DNA from: Planctomycetaceae bacterium
GTDB lineage: Bacteria > Planctomycetota > Planctomycetia > Pirellulales > Lacipirellulaceae
Length of the DNA stretch: 64,000 bases
Direction of reading: 5' to 3'
Assembly: GCA_003233055.1 (NCBI GenBank)
Contig: QIKP01000011.1
Span: forward strand, 1-64,000
Below, piece after piece: positions 17,860 to 23,430 of this stretch (positions are counted from its first letter, which is position 1; each line of letters begins with the position of its first letter). A program made the position numbers and the translations under genes. The notes under the pieces were generated by a model. It did not search any database. It saw only the letters and a program-made list of their open reading frames with translations, and had not been told where the DNA came from.

Positions 17860-19188
17860 TCACCGCTGGAGAGATTCGACGCCAACGGTCATCGCATCCA
17901 TCAGAATGTCGATTTCGGTAAGCGTGATCGACAGTGGCGGCAACGCGTACGTCATGTCGTTGCGAGCGCGGAGCCAGACGCCCCGCTCCAGTGCGGCGTG
18001 AGCCACTCGTCGCCCGACGCGGGCCTCTTTGGAAAAAGGCTCGCCAGTCTGTTGGTTGGCGACCAGATCGACCGCAACGATCATGCCACATTGTCGCGGA
18101 TGGGCCACATGTGGGGACTCGGCCAATTCCGCGAGGCGTTCGCCGAGCCGTTCGATTTTTGGCGCGAGGTTTGCAATCGTCTTTTCCTCTTCAAACAGGT
18201 TCAAAGAAGCAAGTCCCGCCGCTGCTGCAAGAGGATTGCCACTGTAGGTATGGCCATGGTAGAGGGCACGTCCGGAAGCGGCATCGCCTAGGAACGCCTT
18301 CCAAATCCGAGGCGTGGTCAGCGTTGCCGACATCGGCAAATAGCCACCCGTGATCCCTTTGCCCAGGCAGAGAAAATCGGGCAAGACTTGTTCCCGCTGG
18401 CAAGCAAACAGGGCTCCAGTCCGGCCGAAGCCGGTGGCGACTTCGTCGAGGATGAGCAGCACATCGTACCTGTCCGCTAGCTCGCGAAGACCTTTCACAA
18501 ATCCTGCCGGCTGCATGACCATCCCTGCCGCGCCTTGAACGAGTGGCTCGATCACCATCGCAGCGATTTGCTTGCTCTGCTGCTGAAGAATCTTTTCCAC
18601 CGCTTCGAGATAAAAAGCGGCATCGTTGGTTCGACCATTGGGCTGCGGAGCCTGGAGAACGTCCAAGAGCAGCGGAGCGAAGAGCCCACGAAACTCAGCG
18701 ATTCCTCCGACGCTTGCCGCACCGAGCGTATCGCCATGATACGCTTGTCCGAACGCCAGAAACTTTGTCTTGGCCGGTTGTGGCGTATCGCATTGCGTCC
18801 AATACTGAAACGCCGCCTTGAGCGCGACTTCGATGGCCGACGAACCATCGCTCGAAAAAAATACGTGTTCCAAACCGTCAGGAGTGATGTCAACCAGTCG
18901 CTTGGCGAATTGGATCGTCGTGTCACAGCTCATGCCGAGCGACGTGGCGTGGGCTACCTTGCCAAGTTGCTCGCTGATCGCGGCGTTGATCTTCGGATGG
19001 TTGTGGCCATGCACGTTGCACCACATGCTACTCGCACCATCCAGCAGTTTCCGGCCCTTCGTGTCGAAAAGCCAGACGCCATCAGCACGCTCGATCACGA
19101 GCGGCTCGTACTCGGCCATCTGGGTAAACGAGTGCCAGTAGTGCGTGCGATCCCACTCGTGGAGCGATTGGGGAGAAATATCGTTCAT
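17860..19188 (-). CDS. bioA: Adenosylmethionine-8-amino-7-oxononanoate aminotransferase, BioA
   Basis: About 442 residues from ATG 19188 (MNDISPQSLHEWDRTHYWHS), the usual BioA start. The open frame continues to 19458, but that part is an IS630 transposase relic read in frame. PLP enzyme: SSMWCNVHGHNHPKINA, GDTLGAASVGG, LLILDEVATGFGRTG (Asp holding the pyridine N) and CLGKGITGGYLPMSATL with the Schiff-base Lys. It makes DAPA in biotin synthesis using SAM as amino donor. No other bio genes are in the window. The mobile-element boundary lies only about 110 bp upstream of the start, so its promoter may have been altered. Confidence 0.94.
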   Translation of the reverse strand: MNDISPQSLHEWDRTHYWHSFTQMAEYEPLVIERADGVWLFDTKGRKLLDGASSMWCNVHGHNHPKINAAISEQLGKVAHATSLGMSCDTTIQFAKRLVDITPDGLEHVFFSSDGSSAIEVALKAAFQYWTQCDTPQPAKTKFLAFGQAYHGDTLGAASVGGIAEFRGLFAPLLLDVLQAPQPNGRTNDAAFYLEAVEKILQQQSKQIAAMVIEPLVQGAAGMVMQPAGFVKGLRELADRYDVLLILDEVATGFGRTGALFACQREQVLPDFLCLGKGITGGYLPMSATLTTPRIWKAFLGDAASGRALYHGHTYSGNPLAAAAGLASLNLFEEEKTIANLAPKIERLGERLAELAESPHVAHPRQCGMIVAVDLVANQQTGEPFSKEARVGRRVAHAALERGVWLRARNDMTYALPPLSITLTEIDILMDAMTVGVESLQR

Positions 19189-19296: not shown

Positions 19297-19609
19297 TTGG
19301 GCCACACGCCTCGTGGTCCAGAGATCACTGTCGAAACCCGCCTTGCGTGGCCCTGCTCTCAGGCATCGAACGAGCTTATTGCGGGCGGTCTTCGATAATC
19401 GACATGTGGATCGACACTGGGGGATGTGCTGCGGCTTGGCCTTCAAGGCCCGGGCCACGTTTGCCCGCGAGTCGCTTCCACTTGCTCACCGACTGTTGGC
19501 TTACGCCAAGCGACTCCGCCACATCTTTCAGCAGCCAGCCTTCCCCAATTAACTTCACGGCCCGGCGCTGACGGGATTCCAATACTGCGGCGGTTCCTCG
19601 AATTCTCAC
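19297..19609 (-). pseudogene. IS630-type transposase relic (left, inverted copy)
   Basis: Read on the minus strand from GTG 19609, the frame gives RIRGTAAVLESRQRRAVKLI and DVAESLGVSQQSVSKWKRLA, the N-terminal HTH of IS630 transposases, then stops at RPQ (19376). In another frame it continues with ARNKLVRCLRAGPRKAGF and DLWTTRRVAQL, the second winged-helix part, ending abruptly at 19297. The DDE catalytic domain is missing. It is a frameshifted 5' fragment, and its tail is fused in frame to the region upstream of bioA. An inverted partner is at 22436-22630. Confidence 0.75.
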
Positions 19610-19696
19610 GCAACAGAGTAGAACCCGGGACCGCGATGACGTAAACCTCCTGATGCATTGTTCAATAGTGCAATCGCAAAAAAAGATAAGGCGCAC

Positions 19697-19843
19697 ATGG
19701 TACAAATCGCCCAAACGTTTTTACGAAAACTTTTCGAGAATTCGCTTGCAATCTGCGGGGGGGGGGGGGGATCGACGGCTGCGATGGGTCTCACGGGTGG
19801 AACTTTGGCTCGTATTCCTAATCCTTCACAAGTCCTCGAATGA
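19697..19843 (+). CDS. Possible small Gly-rich peptide across a run of 14 G
   Basis: A 48-residue frame (MVQIAQTFLRKLFENSLAIC, then GGGGGSTAAMGLTGG) starting at ATG 19697 with AAGG nearby. The run of 14 G ending at base 19770 codes for the five-Gly stretch. It lies 68 bp before the DUF1573-like gene on the same strand. I have no homology for it. A change of one G would shift the frame, so if real it could be phase-variable; if not, the run may be only a sequencing-prone tract. Weak call. Confidence 0.3.
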   Translation: MVQIAQTFLRKLFENSLAICGGGGGSTAAMGLTGGTLARIPNPSQVLE

Positions 19844-19911
19844 AAGGGTGTTTAGACGCAAATGTCTTGCACCAAGGCTTGTAGTAGCTATCGGTAGCAA
19901 TCATTAACGCC

Positions 19912-20382
19912 ATGCGATTCAAATTGCCACTAATCGATCGGGTAGACTCAATGCTGTTGCGTCTACCTTCTTGGTCAGTTTTTGGAACGGCTCTTATTGC
20001 CATTGTATGGGGGCTTGCATCCTTGGTCGTGAGTCAACAGGAAAGCACGAGCAGTGCCCAGTTAGTTGCGGAATCGCTTGTTATTAACGCGATTAACGGA
20101 AAGGGGCAGGTGCAACTCAAGAATTCTGGCCGTGAAGAAATTCGTATTGTTGGAGCTGAGGTGTCTTGCGCGTGCATCTCACTGCAAAGTATCCTCCCAA
20201 TTTGTATTGCTCCGAACAAGAGCACTGTCTTACAACTTGCAGTCGATTCAAAACGTAAGAAAGAAATGAGTTCTTTTTATGGAACTGTGCTCATATACAC
20301 CCAGCCGTCGACTCATCCAGTCCGTCTGATCGTGCGAGAAGGAGGCGAGCTAACTAAGAGCCTGTCCCAAAACCGAACGTAA
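19912..20382 (+). CDS. Membrane-anchored DUF1573-like protein, C-terminus altered by IS insertion
   Basis: 156 residues as it stands. One membrane segment (about 21-41: SWSVFGTALIAIVWGLASLV) is followed by an extracytoplasmic beta-sandwich-like domain with GREEIRIVGAEVSCACISL and FYGTVLIYTQPSTHPVRLIV, which resembles DUF1573 (the VxxSCGC motif type). The last eight codons and the stop (TAA 20380) come from the IS5-type element starting at 20358. Excising the IS and one TAA repeat continues the frame for 16 other residues (from GGELT to NTSEFKLAGSLIEDRT) and stops at TGA 21021-21023, giving 164 residues. AT-rich relative to flanks. Role unknown; cassette with the downstream peptide. Confidence 0.7.
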   Translation: MRFKLPLIDRVDSMLLRLPSWSVFGTALIAIVWGLASLVVSQQESTSSAQLVAESLVINAINGKGQVQLKNSGREEIRIVGAEVSCACISLQSILPICIAPNKSTVLQLAVDSKRKKEMSSFYGTVLIYTQPSTHPVRLIVREGGELTKSLSQNRT

Positions 20383-20971
20383 TGACACCCCGTTTCCGTA
20401 CCGAGCGTAACTTTTCACTCACTTTGTGCCAGCACGGAGGTGTTTCTCATGGCAAAAAAACGGAAGAAGCGGCGTTCTTGGAGTCTCCCGGATGCGATGT
20501 GGCAACGTATGGAACCGTTGTTGCCTCACTATCGAAAAATTCCTCAAGGGGGTCGCCCCCGTTGTAATCTGCGAAAGATCGCCAACGGCATTTTTTATGT
20601 TTTGCGCACTGGCTGTCAATGGAAGGCGTCGCCTCAAGAGTATGGTTCGGGGAGTAGCCTGCACCGTTACTTCCAAGAGTGGGAAACGGCGGGTGTTTTC
20701 CGCAAGCTGTGGAAGGAGGCACTGCTTGAGTACGACGAGCTCAAGGGGATCCAGTGGAATTGGCAAAGCGTGGGCAGGAAGAATCGCAGCGCAAAAAAAA
20801 ATCCACGATTCAAAGCACGACGATGGGTGGTGGAGAGAACGCATTCTTGGATCAATCGCTTTCGGCGGTTACTTGTTCGCTGGGAAAAGAAAACCGACAA
20901 TTATCTTGCCATGTTGCATCTCTCATTCGCCTGGAACACGCTCAGCTCTGCGAGGGTTCTAGGGTAGGCTC
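20358..20971 (+). mobile_element. IS5-type element, 614 bp, internally deleted
   Basis: Ends GAGCCTGTCCCAAAACC (left) and GAGCCTACCCTAGAACC (right, reverse complement) match at 13 of 17 positions. A TAA repeat flanks it (20355-20357 and 20972-20974). It contains one transposase frame lacking the central DDE region. The insertion lies in the 3' end of the DUF1573-like gene; joining the flanks restores that reading frame, which fixes both ends and the duplication. Confidence 0.85.
20449..20967 (+). CDS. IS5-family transposase with in-frame internal deletion
   Basis: 172 residues from ATG 20449 with GGAGG eight bases upstream. The N-terminal part (WSLPDAMWQRMEPLLPHYRK, then GCQWKASPQEYGSGSSLHRY) is the IS4/IS5-type DNA-binding region. 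It passes directly from KGIQWNWQSVG to KNPRFKARRWVVERTHSWIN, the C-terminal catalytic Glu region. About 90-100 residues holding the first two catalytic Asp of the DDE triad appear to be missing without loss of frame (full IS5 transposases of this group are roughly 270 residues). It cannot catalyse transposition alone but could still bind the ends, acting as a repressor or being mobilised in trans. Confidence 0.8.
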   Translation: MAKKRKKRRSWSLPDAMWQRMEPLLPHYRKIPQGGRPRCNLRKIANGIFYVLRTGCQWKASPQEYGSGSSLHRYFQEWETAGVFRKLWKEALLEYDELKGIQWNWQSVGRKNRSAKKNPRFKARRWVVERTHSWINRFRRLLVRWEKKTDNYLAMLHLSFAWNTLSSARVLG

Positions 20972-21040
20972 TAATACTAGCGAATTCAAATTAGCTGGAA
21001 GTTTGATCGAGGATCGAACATGATTTCTTCCCATTTGTTT

Positions 21041-21047
21041 AGGAGGT
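21041..21047 (+). promoter_or_regulatory. Strong Shine-Dalgarno for the Cys-rich peptide
   Basis: AGGAGGT lies about nine bases upstream of ATG 21057, one of the few near-perfect ribosome binding sites in the window. It supports the small peptide as a real and well-translated gene. Confidence 0.6.
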
Positions 21048-21056
21048 TAGTGTGAC

Positions 21057-21248
21057 ATGAAAACCGTCATGAAAATTACCGCTTGCGTTCTCGCTCTACA
21101 CGGATTTGTCTTGCTTGGTGTCGGAAGCACAGGTGATGTACGGGCGGACGCTGAATTCTTCGCTGATGATTGTGAAAACGCTTGTGTCCGCAACCGTGAC
21201 TGTGAGGATGTGCCCAATTGTGACTGTCCCGGCGAGAAGTGTGATTGA
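21057..21248 (+). CDS. Secreted small acidic Cys-rich peptide
   Basis: A 63-residue precursor. Residues 1-30 are a classical signal peptide (MKTVMKITACVLALHGFVLL, cleavage probably after VRA). The mature part of about 33 residues has six Cys in the order C-x3-C-x5-C-x5-C-x-C-x4-C, 11 acidic and 3 basic residues, and no aromatic residues except a Phe pair near its start. Six Cys with a C-x-C step suggest three disulfides, like knottin, EGF or defensin-type folds, though no family is recognised. It is preceded by a near-ideal ribosome binding site and followed by a stem-loop. It lies between the DUF1573-like and 344-residue genes. Function unknown: bacteriocin, signal or structural peptide are all possible. 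Confidence 0.65.
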   Translation: MKTVMKITACVLALHGFVLLGVGSTGDVRADAEFFADDCENACVRNRDCEDVPNCDCPGEKCD

Positions 21249-21270
21249 TATCGCATCCTATTGATGGGAT

Positions 21271-21300
21271 GATGCGCTGCGTATTTTGGCGCAGCACATC
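21271..21300 (+). terminator. Stem-loop after the Cys-rich peptide gene (terminator or attenuator)
   Basis: GATGCGCTGCG (21271-21281) pairs with CGCAGCACATC (21290-21300) over 11 positions with one mismatch and an eight-base loop. A T-rich stretch (CTTGCTTGTTTTT) follows after a few bases. Partial termination here would favour the peptide message over the downstream 344-residue gene. Confidence 0.45.
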
Positions 21301-21384
21301 GCCTCTTGCTTGTTTTTGCACGCCCATAACGGTAGTCGATCGGAGTGGGTGGCATGCGTGCCAGCTAGCTAAATGCAGTAATCC

Positions 21385-22419
21385 ATGAATTTGCAATCAA
21401 TACAGATACTACCAACAAAGCGTACGCTGTTAAAATTGGGCGTTATTTTTGCGTTTTTTGCATTTCGACACTACGAGGCGGCTGGTGACGAATTTTTTGC
21501 AAGAAGCGTTGGCCTTGACCACGACCTGCTTAACCGCGTTCGTGGTGAAGCAACTGATGCATGGCACACCCTACAGCAAGAACTTGCTGGATTTGAAGCT
21601 AATGTAATACATTCGACTAAGTATCCAGCAGAGGATACTGGAAGCAATAAAATCCGTGAATCGAAGTTCGTTGTATTTCCTGGCAGGCAGCTGATGCTTG
21701 CTTATTCAGAAAGACCAACGGAAGTAGATGCCTCCAATGAACACAACGCGTTTTCGCTTAGGAAGTCTTCGGTGGGTGATTTTTATATTAAACGATTCAC
21801 CCGAGCTACCGATAGCAAGTACCCCACAAAACGGTTGCTCTATAACATGTCCGTATTAGAAGCGGCGTATAGCATATGGGGCATTCCATTGGAAGAGTTT
21901 TTTGTAAGCGAAACGTTTAAGCCTGTGGGTGCCGAATTACGACAAGAAAGTGGCCGTGATGTTGTTACTATTGCTTTCGAATGCTTGGAATCGAAAAACA
22001 CGAGTCCCAAAAAGCAGCCTGGTGGCATATACTGGGCCGTGCTGCTTCCGGAAAGTAAGTGGGAGGTAATTCGATCGGGAGTTGAAAATGTGCAAGACAT
22101 GAGAGGTAACGAATTCTTTGTCCGTGAAAAAAATACATACAAACCGTGGAATGGGATAGACGTCTTTCCAGTTGAGACACGCAGGGAATTTATAGAAAAA
22201 GAGAAAGTCACTGAAATTGTTATTGCTAAATTGCAAGAGTTGAGAAGTATTACACACACCGAAGAAGAGTGCTATCTTCCATACTATGGGCTGGGTGATA
22301 CTCTAATGGATTCTGGGCGTGCATCATCTTCACATAAAATATCGATTGTGATAACAGGTGTTATATGCCTAGTGCTTGCTATTCTTGTATGGAGAAAATC
22401 ACGGCTTATGGGGCCGTAG
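21385..22419 (+). CDS. Exported protein with C-terminal membrane anchor, unknown family
   Basis: 344 residues. An N-terminal hydrophobic segment (KRTLLKLGVIFAFFAFRHYE) acts as signal peptide. A long soluble region (about 35-305) has no motif I recognise. Near the end are ECYLPYYGLGDTLMDSGR and a single membrane helix (ISIVITGVICLVLAILVW) with a short basic tail (RKSR). The layout is that of an extracytoplasmic protein held at the membrane by its C-terminus. No ribosome binding site stands out at ATG 21385. The line 22201-22260 has 21 G/C of 60, much lower than flanking genes, which points to transfer. Probable partner of the upstream peptide and DUF1573-like protein. Confidence 0.7.
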   Translation: MNLQSIQILPTKRTLLKLGVIFAFFAFRHYEAAGDEFFARSVGLDHDLLNRVRGEATDAWHTLQQELAGFEANVIHSTKYPAEDTGSNKIRESKFVVFPGRQLMLAYSERPTEVDASNEHNAFSLRKSSVGDFYIKRFTRATDSKYPTKRLLYNMSVLEAAYSIWGIPLEEFFVSETFKPVGAELRQESGRDVVTIAFECLESKNTSPKKQPGGIYWAVLLPESKWEVIRSGVENVQDMRGNEFFVREKNTYKPWNGIDVFPVETRREFIEKEKVTEIVIAKLQELRSITHTEEECYLPYYGLGDTLMDSGRASSSHKISIVITGVICLVLAILVWRKSRLMGP

Positions 22420-22435
22420 TAGGCTAGATAAAGCA

Positions 22436-22630
22436 ACGCTTCGCGGGCAAATGTGCCCCCCCCCGAGGCCCGGGCCTCGAAGGCCAAGCCGCAGCACATC
22501 CCCCCAGTGTCGATTATCGAAGACGGCCCGCAATAAGCTCGTTCGATGCCTGAGAGCAGAGCCACGCAAGGCGGGTTTCAACAGGGATCTCTGCCACGGG
22601 GATCTCTGGGTCACGAGGCGTGTGGCCCAA
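22436..22630 (+). pseudogene. IS630-type transposase relic (right, inverted copy)
   Basis: The plus strand here matches the minus strand of 19297-19470: shared words include GCCAAGCCGCAGCACATCCC, GCAATAAGCTCGTTCGATGC and CACGAGGCGTGTGGCCCAA. In one frame it reads ARNKLVRCLRAEPRKAGF and LWVTRRVAQ. It lacks the N-terminal HTH start and the whole catalytic domain. Homology between the two copies stops at the same outer sequence, GGCCCAA. Confidence 0.7.
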
Positions 22631-22653: not shown

Positions 22654-23430
22654 CTACCATTCCACCGTCACCTTCTCACCAACGTCGATGTCGAGCCTCT
22701 GCTTGGCCGACTCGTTGACGATCGCCAACTCCAACTTGTCACCAGAACCAATCAGGGCGATCAACGTCATGGTGGGCTGGTCCGCGTAGGTCTCGCAAAG
22801 GCCGGTCGTCTCGCGCCCGCCGCACCGCACACGAACCCTCTCCCCTCGTGGTACCCCTTCGAGCAAGTCGGTCGAGATATTCGTGAGGAGATTGCCAAAC
22901 GTGTCAATCTCCACGACCTGGCCGTCGATTCGTTGCTCCACTTTCGTTGCGCTAGGCAGCGGGAGCCTTACGAAGTCGTGGGTCTCTGGGCCAAGTTGGG
23001 TCCGATCGAGCCCCAACGACAAACGGGCCGCCACGGGGGCCATGATATCGCGGCCATGGAACGTCCTGGAGACCTTCGCCAGCCAGTGCTCCTCGTTTTG
23101 GATCACCCTTATCGTAGCGGGTTGGATTCGATCCGCCAAGTAAGTCAACAGTCCATTGTCAGGAACAACGTATTGCTGCGAACCAATTTCCGCATAGAGA
23201 ATGCGTCGGTCGGTTCCCACCCCCGGATCGACAACGGCCACATGGAGCGTTCCTTCAGGGAACCACGGCGTCGTCTCCGCCAGCAAAAATGCTGCGGCTC
23301 GCACGTCTTGGGGTTCGATCGAATGACTGATGTCGATGATGGAGAGCGCCGGATGAATCGACAGCAGGACCCCTTTCATCGCCGCTACATAACGGCTCCC
23401 TTCGCCAAAATCGGTAGTAAGCGTGACGAT
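22654..23430 (-). CDS. SAM hydroxide adenosyltransferase family protein (DUF62)
   Basis: The first ATG is at 23379, but the frame upstream encodes IVTLTTDFGEGSRYVAAM, the conserved DUF62 N-terminus whose Asp contacts SAM. No ATG, GTG or TTG exists between the preceding in-frame stop and that motif. AGGGGG lies seven bases before an ATC at 23430-23428, so I place the start there (about 258 residues). Other motifs: VVDPGVGTDRR, FVVPDNGLLT-like YVVPDNGLLTYLAD, HGRDIMAPVAA and DTFGNLLTNI. The family hydrolyses SAM to adenosine and methionine and includes the halide-using fluorinase/chlorinase; the loop and residues here fit the hydroxide type. It starts one base after the gatB stop. Confidence 0.88.
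   Translation of the reverse strand: MVTLTTDFGEGSRYVAAMKGVLLSIHPALSIIDISHSIEPQDVRAAAFLLAETTPWFPEGTLHVAVVDPGVGTDRRILYAEIGSQQYVVPDNGLLTYLADRIQPATIRVIQNEEHWLAKVSRTFHGRDIMAPVAARLSLGLDRTQLGPETHDFVRLPLPSATKVEQRIDGQVVEIDTFGNLLTNISTDLLEGVPRGERVRVRCGGRETTGLCETYADQPTMTLIALIGSGDKLELAIVNESAKQRLDIDVGEKVTVEW

What the first reader, a model, noticed from the sequence alone, without database searches (positions are those of the whole stretch)
19297..22630. AT-richer island bracketed by inverted IS630 relics, carrying a possible secreted-peptide cassette
Two decayed IS630-type transposase fragments in opposite orientation enclose 3.3 kb, and their homology ends at the same outer sequence (GGCCCAA). A sampled line inside has 21 G/C of 60 against 36 in one bioA line. 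Between them lie a short ORF over a G14 tract, a membrane-anchored DUF1573-like protein, a six-Cys secreted peptide and a 344-residue protein anchored at its C-terminus. Same strand, close spacing and shared composition suggest one transferred unit with an undescribed function at the cell surface.
Basis: partly seen in the sequence, partly recalled or inferred. Interest (0 to 1): 0.78.

Follow-up and report, generated by a model that had tools for sequence, protein, structure and literature searches.

The report
Mobile-looking Cys-rich secreted peptide cassette
A foreign-looking 3.3-kb insert in a planctomycete genome carries a previously unnamed three-gene set, conserved in about 20 other planctomycete genomes, that makes a small secreted peptide very probably held together by disulfide bonds, together with a membrane redox-type partner and a membrane-tethered LolA-like carrier or receptor.

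Summary
Two inverted IS630 orfA fragments (19297-19714 and 22441-22630) bracket the lowest-GC stretch of the window (0.478 against 0.591). In 26 relatives the flanking genes bioA and the SAM hydroxide adenosyltransferase lie 0-723 bp apart (median 90); here they are 3,465 bp apart, so the insertion is real. The ORF over the G14 tract has no support. The cassette DUF1573 -> Cys-rich secreted peptide -> C-terminally anchored protein recurs in this order in about 27 loci across a dozen planctomycete families, with a second copy in this genome. The anchored protein has a predicted LolA fold. The peptides match no Pfam or NCBIfam family; 26 of 27 have an even number of mature cysteines (p = 2e-7), and 24 of 27 end in CxC. 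Several cassettes add MauE. Most likely this is an oxidative-maturation and presentation unit for a disulfide-rich secreted peptide. The final purpose (signal, toxin, binding protein) is open. The IS630 fragments cannot move anything today.

The parts
19297..19714 (-). Left IS630 relic: N-terminal (orfA) transposase fragment; the arm shared with the right relic is 19297-19470
   Evidence: HTH_23 E 5e-6; inverted repeats I1-I3, I8; arms aligned
22441..22630 (+). Right IS630 relic, inverted copy of the left arm, ending at the same GGCCCAA
   Evidence: protein hit at 22449-22508
19912..20382 (+). Membrane-anchored DUF1573 protein with motif SCAC; its last residues are encoded by the IS5-family relic. 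Without the relic the frame ends at 21023 (164 aa)
   Evidence: PF07610 27.4 bits, over cut-off 26.1; joined flanks; motif survey
20358..20971 (+). IS5-family relic, internally deleted transposase ORF 20440-20967, TAA duplication; a secondary insertion, not part of the original cassette
   Evidence: DUF4096 E 8e-27, DDE_Tnp_1_2 E 1e-8; ends and duplication
21057..21248 (+). Cys-rich secreted peptide: Sec-type signal followed by a short mature part with six Cys and a CxC near the end
   Evidence: ORF; the only such candidate in the 64-kb window; family alignment
21385..22419 (+). 344-aa LolA-like protein with signal/TM at the N-terminus and a C-terminal membrane anchor
   Evidence: AlphaFold2 pLDDT 78.5, pTM 0.71; Foldseek 3buu E 3.8e-9; no Pfam family
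17860..19188 (-). bioA, flanking gene (start codon at 19188)
   Evidence: Aminotran_3 E 1.6e-98; synteny
22654..23379 (-). SAM hydroxide adenosyltransferase gene, flanking gene; next to bioA in relatives
   Evidence: SAM_HAT_N E 1.9e-43; synteny

Best explanation
The island is a horizontally acquired copy of a conserved planctomycete cassette that makes and handles one disulfide-rich secreted peptide. The peptide leaves by a Sec signal. Its cysteines are paired outside the membrane with help from the anchored DUF1573 protein, a CxC thiol domain, which in many loci works with MauE, a membrane redox protein with a CGCFG motif. The LolA-like protein, tethered by its C-terminus, binds the folded peptide or a lipid ligand and holds or hands it on at the cell surface. 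Shown from sequence: conserved order, insertion, foreign composition, Cys parity, C-terminal CxC, LolA fold (predicted), gene fusion of the LolA-like and DUF1573 parts. Inferred: disulfide catalysis by DUF1573/MauE, peptide binding by the LolA-like protein, and whether the window copy still works after the IS5-family insertion.
For: Gene order DUF1573-peptide-LolA-like recurs in 27 loci by one fixed rule; 38 of 118 LolA-like ORFs have a Cys peptide directly upstream on the same strand, against 2 downstream and 0 on the opposite strand. Chance rate of the peptide scan: 2 in 106 kb of control loci. Even Cys number in 26 of 27 (p = 2e-7) and CxC within the last ten residues in 24 of 27; 14 of 17 first-set peptides have CxC in the last eight residues, reached by 0 of 20,000 shuffles. 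MauE above its Pfam cut-off fused to or just upstream of DUF1573 in G047, G044, G052 and G696. 35 of 43 DUF1573 ORFs carry CxC, and DUF1573 is a listed selenoprotein family with motif UGC (PMC9312934), which points to a redox thiol. LolA-like and DUF1573 are fused in G276, G332 and G443. Fold: LolA superfamily, TM-score 0.60 to 3buu. Insertion.
Against: The window genome has no MauE match, so this copy lacks the best redox candidate. Its DUF1573 C-terminus was replaced by IS5-family sequence. 8 of 43 DUF1573 ORFs lack CxC, including the paralogue in the same genome, which has SCRGC. Many LolA-like genes stand without a peptide, in tandem arrays or alone, so the LolA-like protein is not strictly tied to the peptide. 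No transporter, protease or activity gene recurs.
Confidence: 0.5

Rival explanations
1. A secreted peptide toxin (bacteriocin-like) with the anchored LolA-like protein as its immunity or delivery partner; the DUF1573 protein folds the toxin.
For: Peptides are small, disulfide-rich and very variable between loci while the partner genes stay; cassettes are patchy and AT-rich in two places of one genome; tandem LolA-like copies.
Against: No PADLOC match, no recurrent exporter or peptidase, no plasmid or phage match to the LolA-like protein; I know of no immunity protein with a LolA fold.
Confidence: 0.2
2. An extracellular electron-transfer or metal-binding peptide (metallothionein-like) loaded by the redox partner and stored on the LolA-like protein.
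For: High Cys content and CxC motifs; MauE and DUF1573 are redox-linked families.
Against: Strict even Cys number is expected for disulfides, not for metal thiolates; no metal genes were recognised in the neighbourhoods read.
Confidence: 0.13
3. A RiPP: the peptide is a precursor carrying further modifications and MauE/DUF1573 are tailoring genes, as proposed for MauE-linked Cys-rich precursors in Streptomyces.
For: PMC7794033 reports three candidate families with mauE and precursors of at least 8 Cys.
Against: Sec-type signal instead of a RiPP leader in the window peptide; no other tailoring enzyme, protease or ABC transporter was seen to recur.
Confidence: 0.1
4. An IS630-bounded decaying island with no function in this strain; the genes are remnants. 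(This concerns the window copy and is compatible with the main reading of the system elsewhere.)
For: Decayed IS630 arms, IS5-family relic cutting DUF1573, foreign codon use, no MauE.
Against: All three reading frames are open, signal, anchor and six Cys are kept, and the cassette is conserved elsewhere.
Confidence: 0.3

Closest known systems
MauE/MauD maturation of the methylamine dehydrogenase beta-subunit (van der Palen 1997, cited in PMC7794033)
   Same: MauE-type membrane protein needed for an exported disulfide-rich polypeptide; proposed role in disulfide formation
   Different: No methylamine dehydrogenase genes seen; partner is DUF1573 in place of MauD; substrate is a 30-60 residue peptide; a LolA-like protein is added; MauE is absent from the window genome
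MauE-linked Cys-rich precursor candidates of Streptomyces (decRiPPter, PMC7794033)
   Same: MauE homologue with a small precursor of at least 8 Cys
   Different: Only predicted; other phylum; no DUF1573 or LolA-like partner is mentioned in the passages read; the window peptide has six mature Cys and a Sec-type signal
LolA superfamily (NE2245, 3buu)
   Same: Predicted fold over about 255 alignment columns
   Different: No Pfam LolA match; C-terminal membrane anchor; about 10% identity
DUF1573 (PF07610)
   Same: Domain match above cut-off with the CxC motif
   Different: Function of the family is unknown; here N-terminally anchored and paired with a peptide
IS630 composite transposon
   Same: Two inverted IS630-derived arms around foreign genes
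   Different: Arms are truncated internal fragments without the DDE part or IS ends, and no TA duplication

Membership tests
IS630 composite transposon | Two IS630 copies, at least one with an intact transposase | tested here: not met
   Only N-terminal fragments with frame breaks
IS630 composite transposon | TA target duplication at the outer ends | tested here: not met
   No TA on both sides of the GGCCCAA ends
IS630 composite transposon | Empty site in relatives | tested here: met
   bioA to SAM_HAT gap 0-723 bp in 26 relatives, 3,465 bp here
MauE/MauD-type maturation system | MauE gene beside the substrate gene | tested here: inconclusive
   Present in G047, G044, G052 and G696 cassettes; absent from the window genome
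MauE/MauD-type maturation system | Exported substrate with paired cysteines | tested here: inconclusive
   Even Cys in 26 of 27 cassettes fits pairing; the pairing itself is not measured
LolA superfamily | LolA fold | tested here: met
   Predicted model; Foldseek E 3.8e-9
LolA superfamily | Pfam or NCBIfam LolA profile match | tested here: not met
   No family at E up to 1 in Pfam; only chance-level hits in NCBIfam
LolA superfamily | Binds lipoprotein or lipid | not testable with these tools
   -
NVEALA peptides of Bacteroidetes (recalled analogue) | Match to a curated profile of that family | tested here: not met
   30 cassette peptides match no Pfam or NCBIfam model at E up to 0.01
RiPP cluster | Recurrent tailoring enzyme, protease and transporter around the precursor | tested here: inconclusive
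   None was seen to recur in 12 extended neighbourhoods, but flanking ORFs were read by eye and not all scanned with profiles
DUF1573 | PF07610 above gathering score | tested here: met
   27.4 against 26.1 bits

The most novel reading that the evidence does not exclude
A previously undescribed planctomycete system in which hypervariable disulfide-rich secreted peptides, each paired with its own membrane-tethered LolA-like receptor and a dedicated MauE/DUF1573 thiol relay, act in cell-cell signalling or competition, and which spreads between genomes as a cassette.
Probability: 0.35. Interest if true: 0.85.

Novelty: new variant of a known kind. Interest (0 to 1): 0.62.

Why it matters
It gives two protein families without a name (the Cys-rich peptides and the anchored LolA-like protein) a conserved genetic context, and gives DUF1573, a widespread domain of unknown function, a testable role as a thiol partner of a defined substrate. 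The parity of cysteines is a simple, strong prediction that mass spectrometry can settle. No paper in the held library mentions DUF1573 together with planctomycetes or a cysteine-rich peptide in Pirellulales; the library is open-access only, so this is not proof that none exists.

Tried and rejected
ORF over the G14 tract: no family, partly antisense to the IS630 relic, no counterpart seen in other cassettes; rejected as a gene. AlphaFold2 of the peptide (pLDDT 65, pTM 0.24): uninformative. PDB sequence search with the peptide profile gave only Evasin-3, a tick peptide that I recall as a cystine-knot protein, at E 0.07; too weak to use. PADLOC: nothing. Plasmid and phage collections: no match to the LolA-like protein. 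The first profile (4 rows) found only 2 of 392 genomes across the phylum; the 10-row profile found 60 of 397 in the order and 15 of 392 in a phylum sample, so the low first count was a matter of sensitivity. A first bioA translation was in the wrong frame and was redone. The idea that the second cassette in the genome is a recent duplicate was rejected: on the tree the two sit in different groups.

Full report
Observation. They encode the helix-turn-helix part of an IS630 transposase. Compared with a longer IS630 orfA in relative G019 they stop inside orfA just after DLWT..RVA, so both arms are the same internal fragment and neither is an IS end. No TA duplication is visible. The stretch between them has GC 0.478 against 0.591 for the window and is its lowest 3-kb stretch; codon scores of the LolA-like, DUF1573 and peptide genes lie 6.8, 4.5 and 4.4 standard deviations below the 32 long ORFs used as native genes.

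Insertion. In the family the order gatB - SAM hydroxide adenosyltransferase - bioA is kept. In 26 relatives the last two are 0-723 bp apart, median 90; in the window they are 3,465 bp apart. The island is therefore an insertion in this lineage.

A 614-bp IS5-family relic (20358-20971; DUF4096 and DDE domains, inverted ends GAGCCT, TAA duplication) sits in the 3' end of the DUF1573 gene. With the flanks joined, the DUF1573 frame has 164 codons and stops at 21023, about 30 bp before the peptide gene, so the original cassette was compact. The ORF over the G14 tract is not supported.

Conservation. The 344-aa protein had homologues in only a few genomes at first. Reading those loci showed the same order: an anchored DUF1573 protein, a small Cys-rich secreted ORF, then the C-anchored protein (the peptide of G005). 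A profile of ten such proteins hit 60 of 397 genomes of the order and 15 of 392 across the phylum, including other families of the class. By one fixed rule, 38 of 118 LolA-like ORFs have a Cys-rich signal-bearing ORF within 450 bp upstream on the same strand, and 27 of these have DUF1573 just upstream of it; controls give 2 downstream and 0 on the opposite strand. One locus is counted twice in the 27 (L067 and L094), and in one (the first of L093) the rule picked an overlapping ORF instead of the more convincing peptide. The window itself fails the DUF1573 distance only because of the IS5-family insertion. A chance scan of 106 kb of unrelated loci gives 2 candidates. The window genome holds a second cassette on contig C25.

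The peptides. Counted by a rule fixed before the second sample was read (after the hydrophobic core), mature cysteines are even in all 17 of the first set, in 14 of 15 of the convincing peptides of the second set (the choice of convincing ones rests on position and was mine) and in all 3 of the third. Over the full cassettes of the fixed rule the count is 26 of 27 (p = 2e-7). The one odd case (G753) would be even if the signal is cut slightly earlier. Some peptides are related copies, so the p-value overstates the strength somewhat. 24 of 27 carry CxC within the last ten residues. An alignment of 30 shows a common Cys framework; no Pfam or NCBIfam model matches.

The partners. DUF1573 ORFs carry CxC in 35 of 43 cases, and the family is listed as a selenoprotein family with motif UGC (PMC9312934); both point to a redox thiol. 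MauE is fused to or directly upstream of DUF1573 in several cassettes, and CxCFG motifs like that of the MauE part of G047 occur in further fused proteins. MauE has been proposed to form disulfides in methylamine dehydrogenase, and in Streptomyces it accompanies Cys-rich precursor candidates (PMC7794033). The anchored protein is predicted as a LolA fold, and in three genomes it is fused to DUF1573, which supports joint action.

Mechanism. Sec export of the peptide, disulfide formation or isomerisation by DUF1573 with or without MauE, and binding by the tethered LolA-like protein is the most economical reading. Export signal, conservation and Cys parity are shown from sequence; catalysis and binding are inferred. 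The window genome lacks MauE, and the IS5-family insertion changed the end of DUF1573, so whether this copy works is uncertain.

IS630 link. In the whole 2.78-Mb assembly the IS630 helix-turn-helix is found at two places only: the window arms, and contig C25 within 0.6 kb of the second cassette. A random second site would rarely fall so close, but this was noticed after the fact. The two cassettes are not recent copies of each other.

Noticed in passing
L153, L158, L160 (G276, G332, G443): LolA-like protein and DUF1573 domain fused in one ORF.
   Followed up: partly
L011:11569-12870: In G005 DUF1573 is fused to the C-terminus of a family-2 glycosyltransferase directly upstream of the peptide and LolA-like genes.
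   Followed up: no
L065, L066, L119, L135: Several f17-family genomes carry tandem or repeated LolA-like genes without a detectable Cys peptide.
   Followed up: partly
L021:6864-7471: A second DUF1573 ORF behind the C25 cassette, whose C-terminal end runs antisense through an IS630 helix-turn-helix relic.
   Followed up: partly
G000:C29:29927-30067: A further fragment of the IS5-family relic, 82% identical, in the same genome.
   Followed up: no
window:22620-22645: Imperfect palindrome GTGTGGCCCAAAAATTGGGGGCCAC at the right outer end of the IS630 arm.
   Followed up: no
whole assembly G000: The assembly has 2.78 Mb (90% complete), against 4.6-7.8 Mb in three genomes of the same genus.
   Followed up: no
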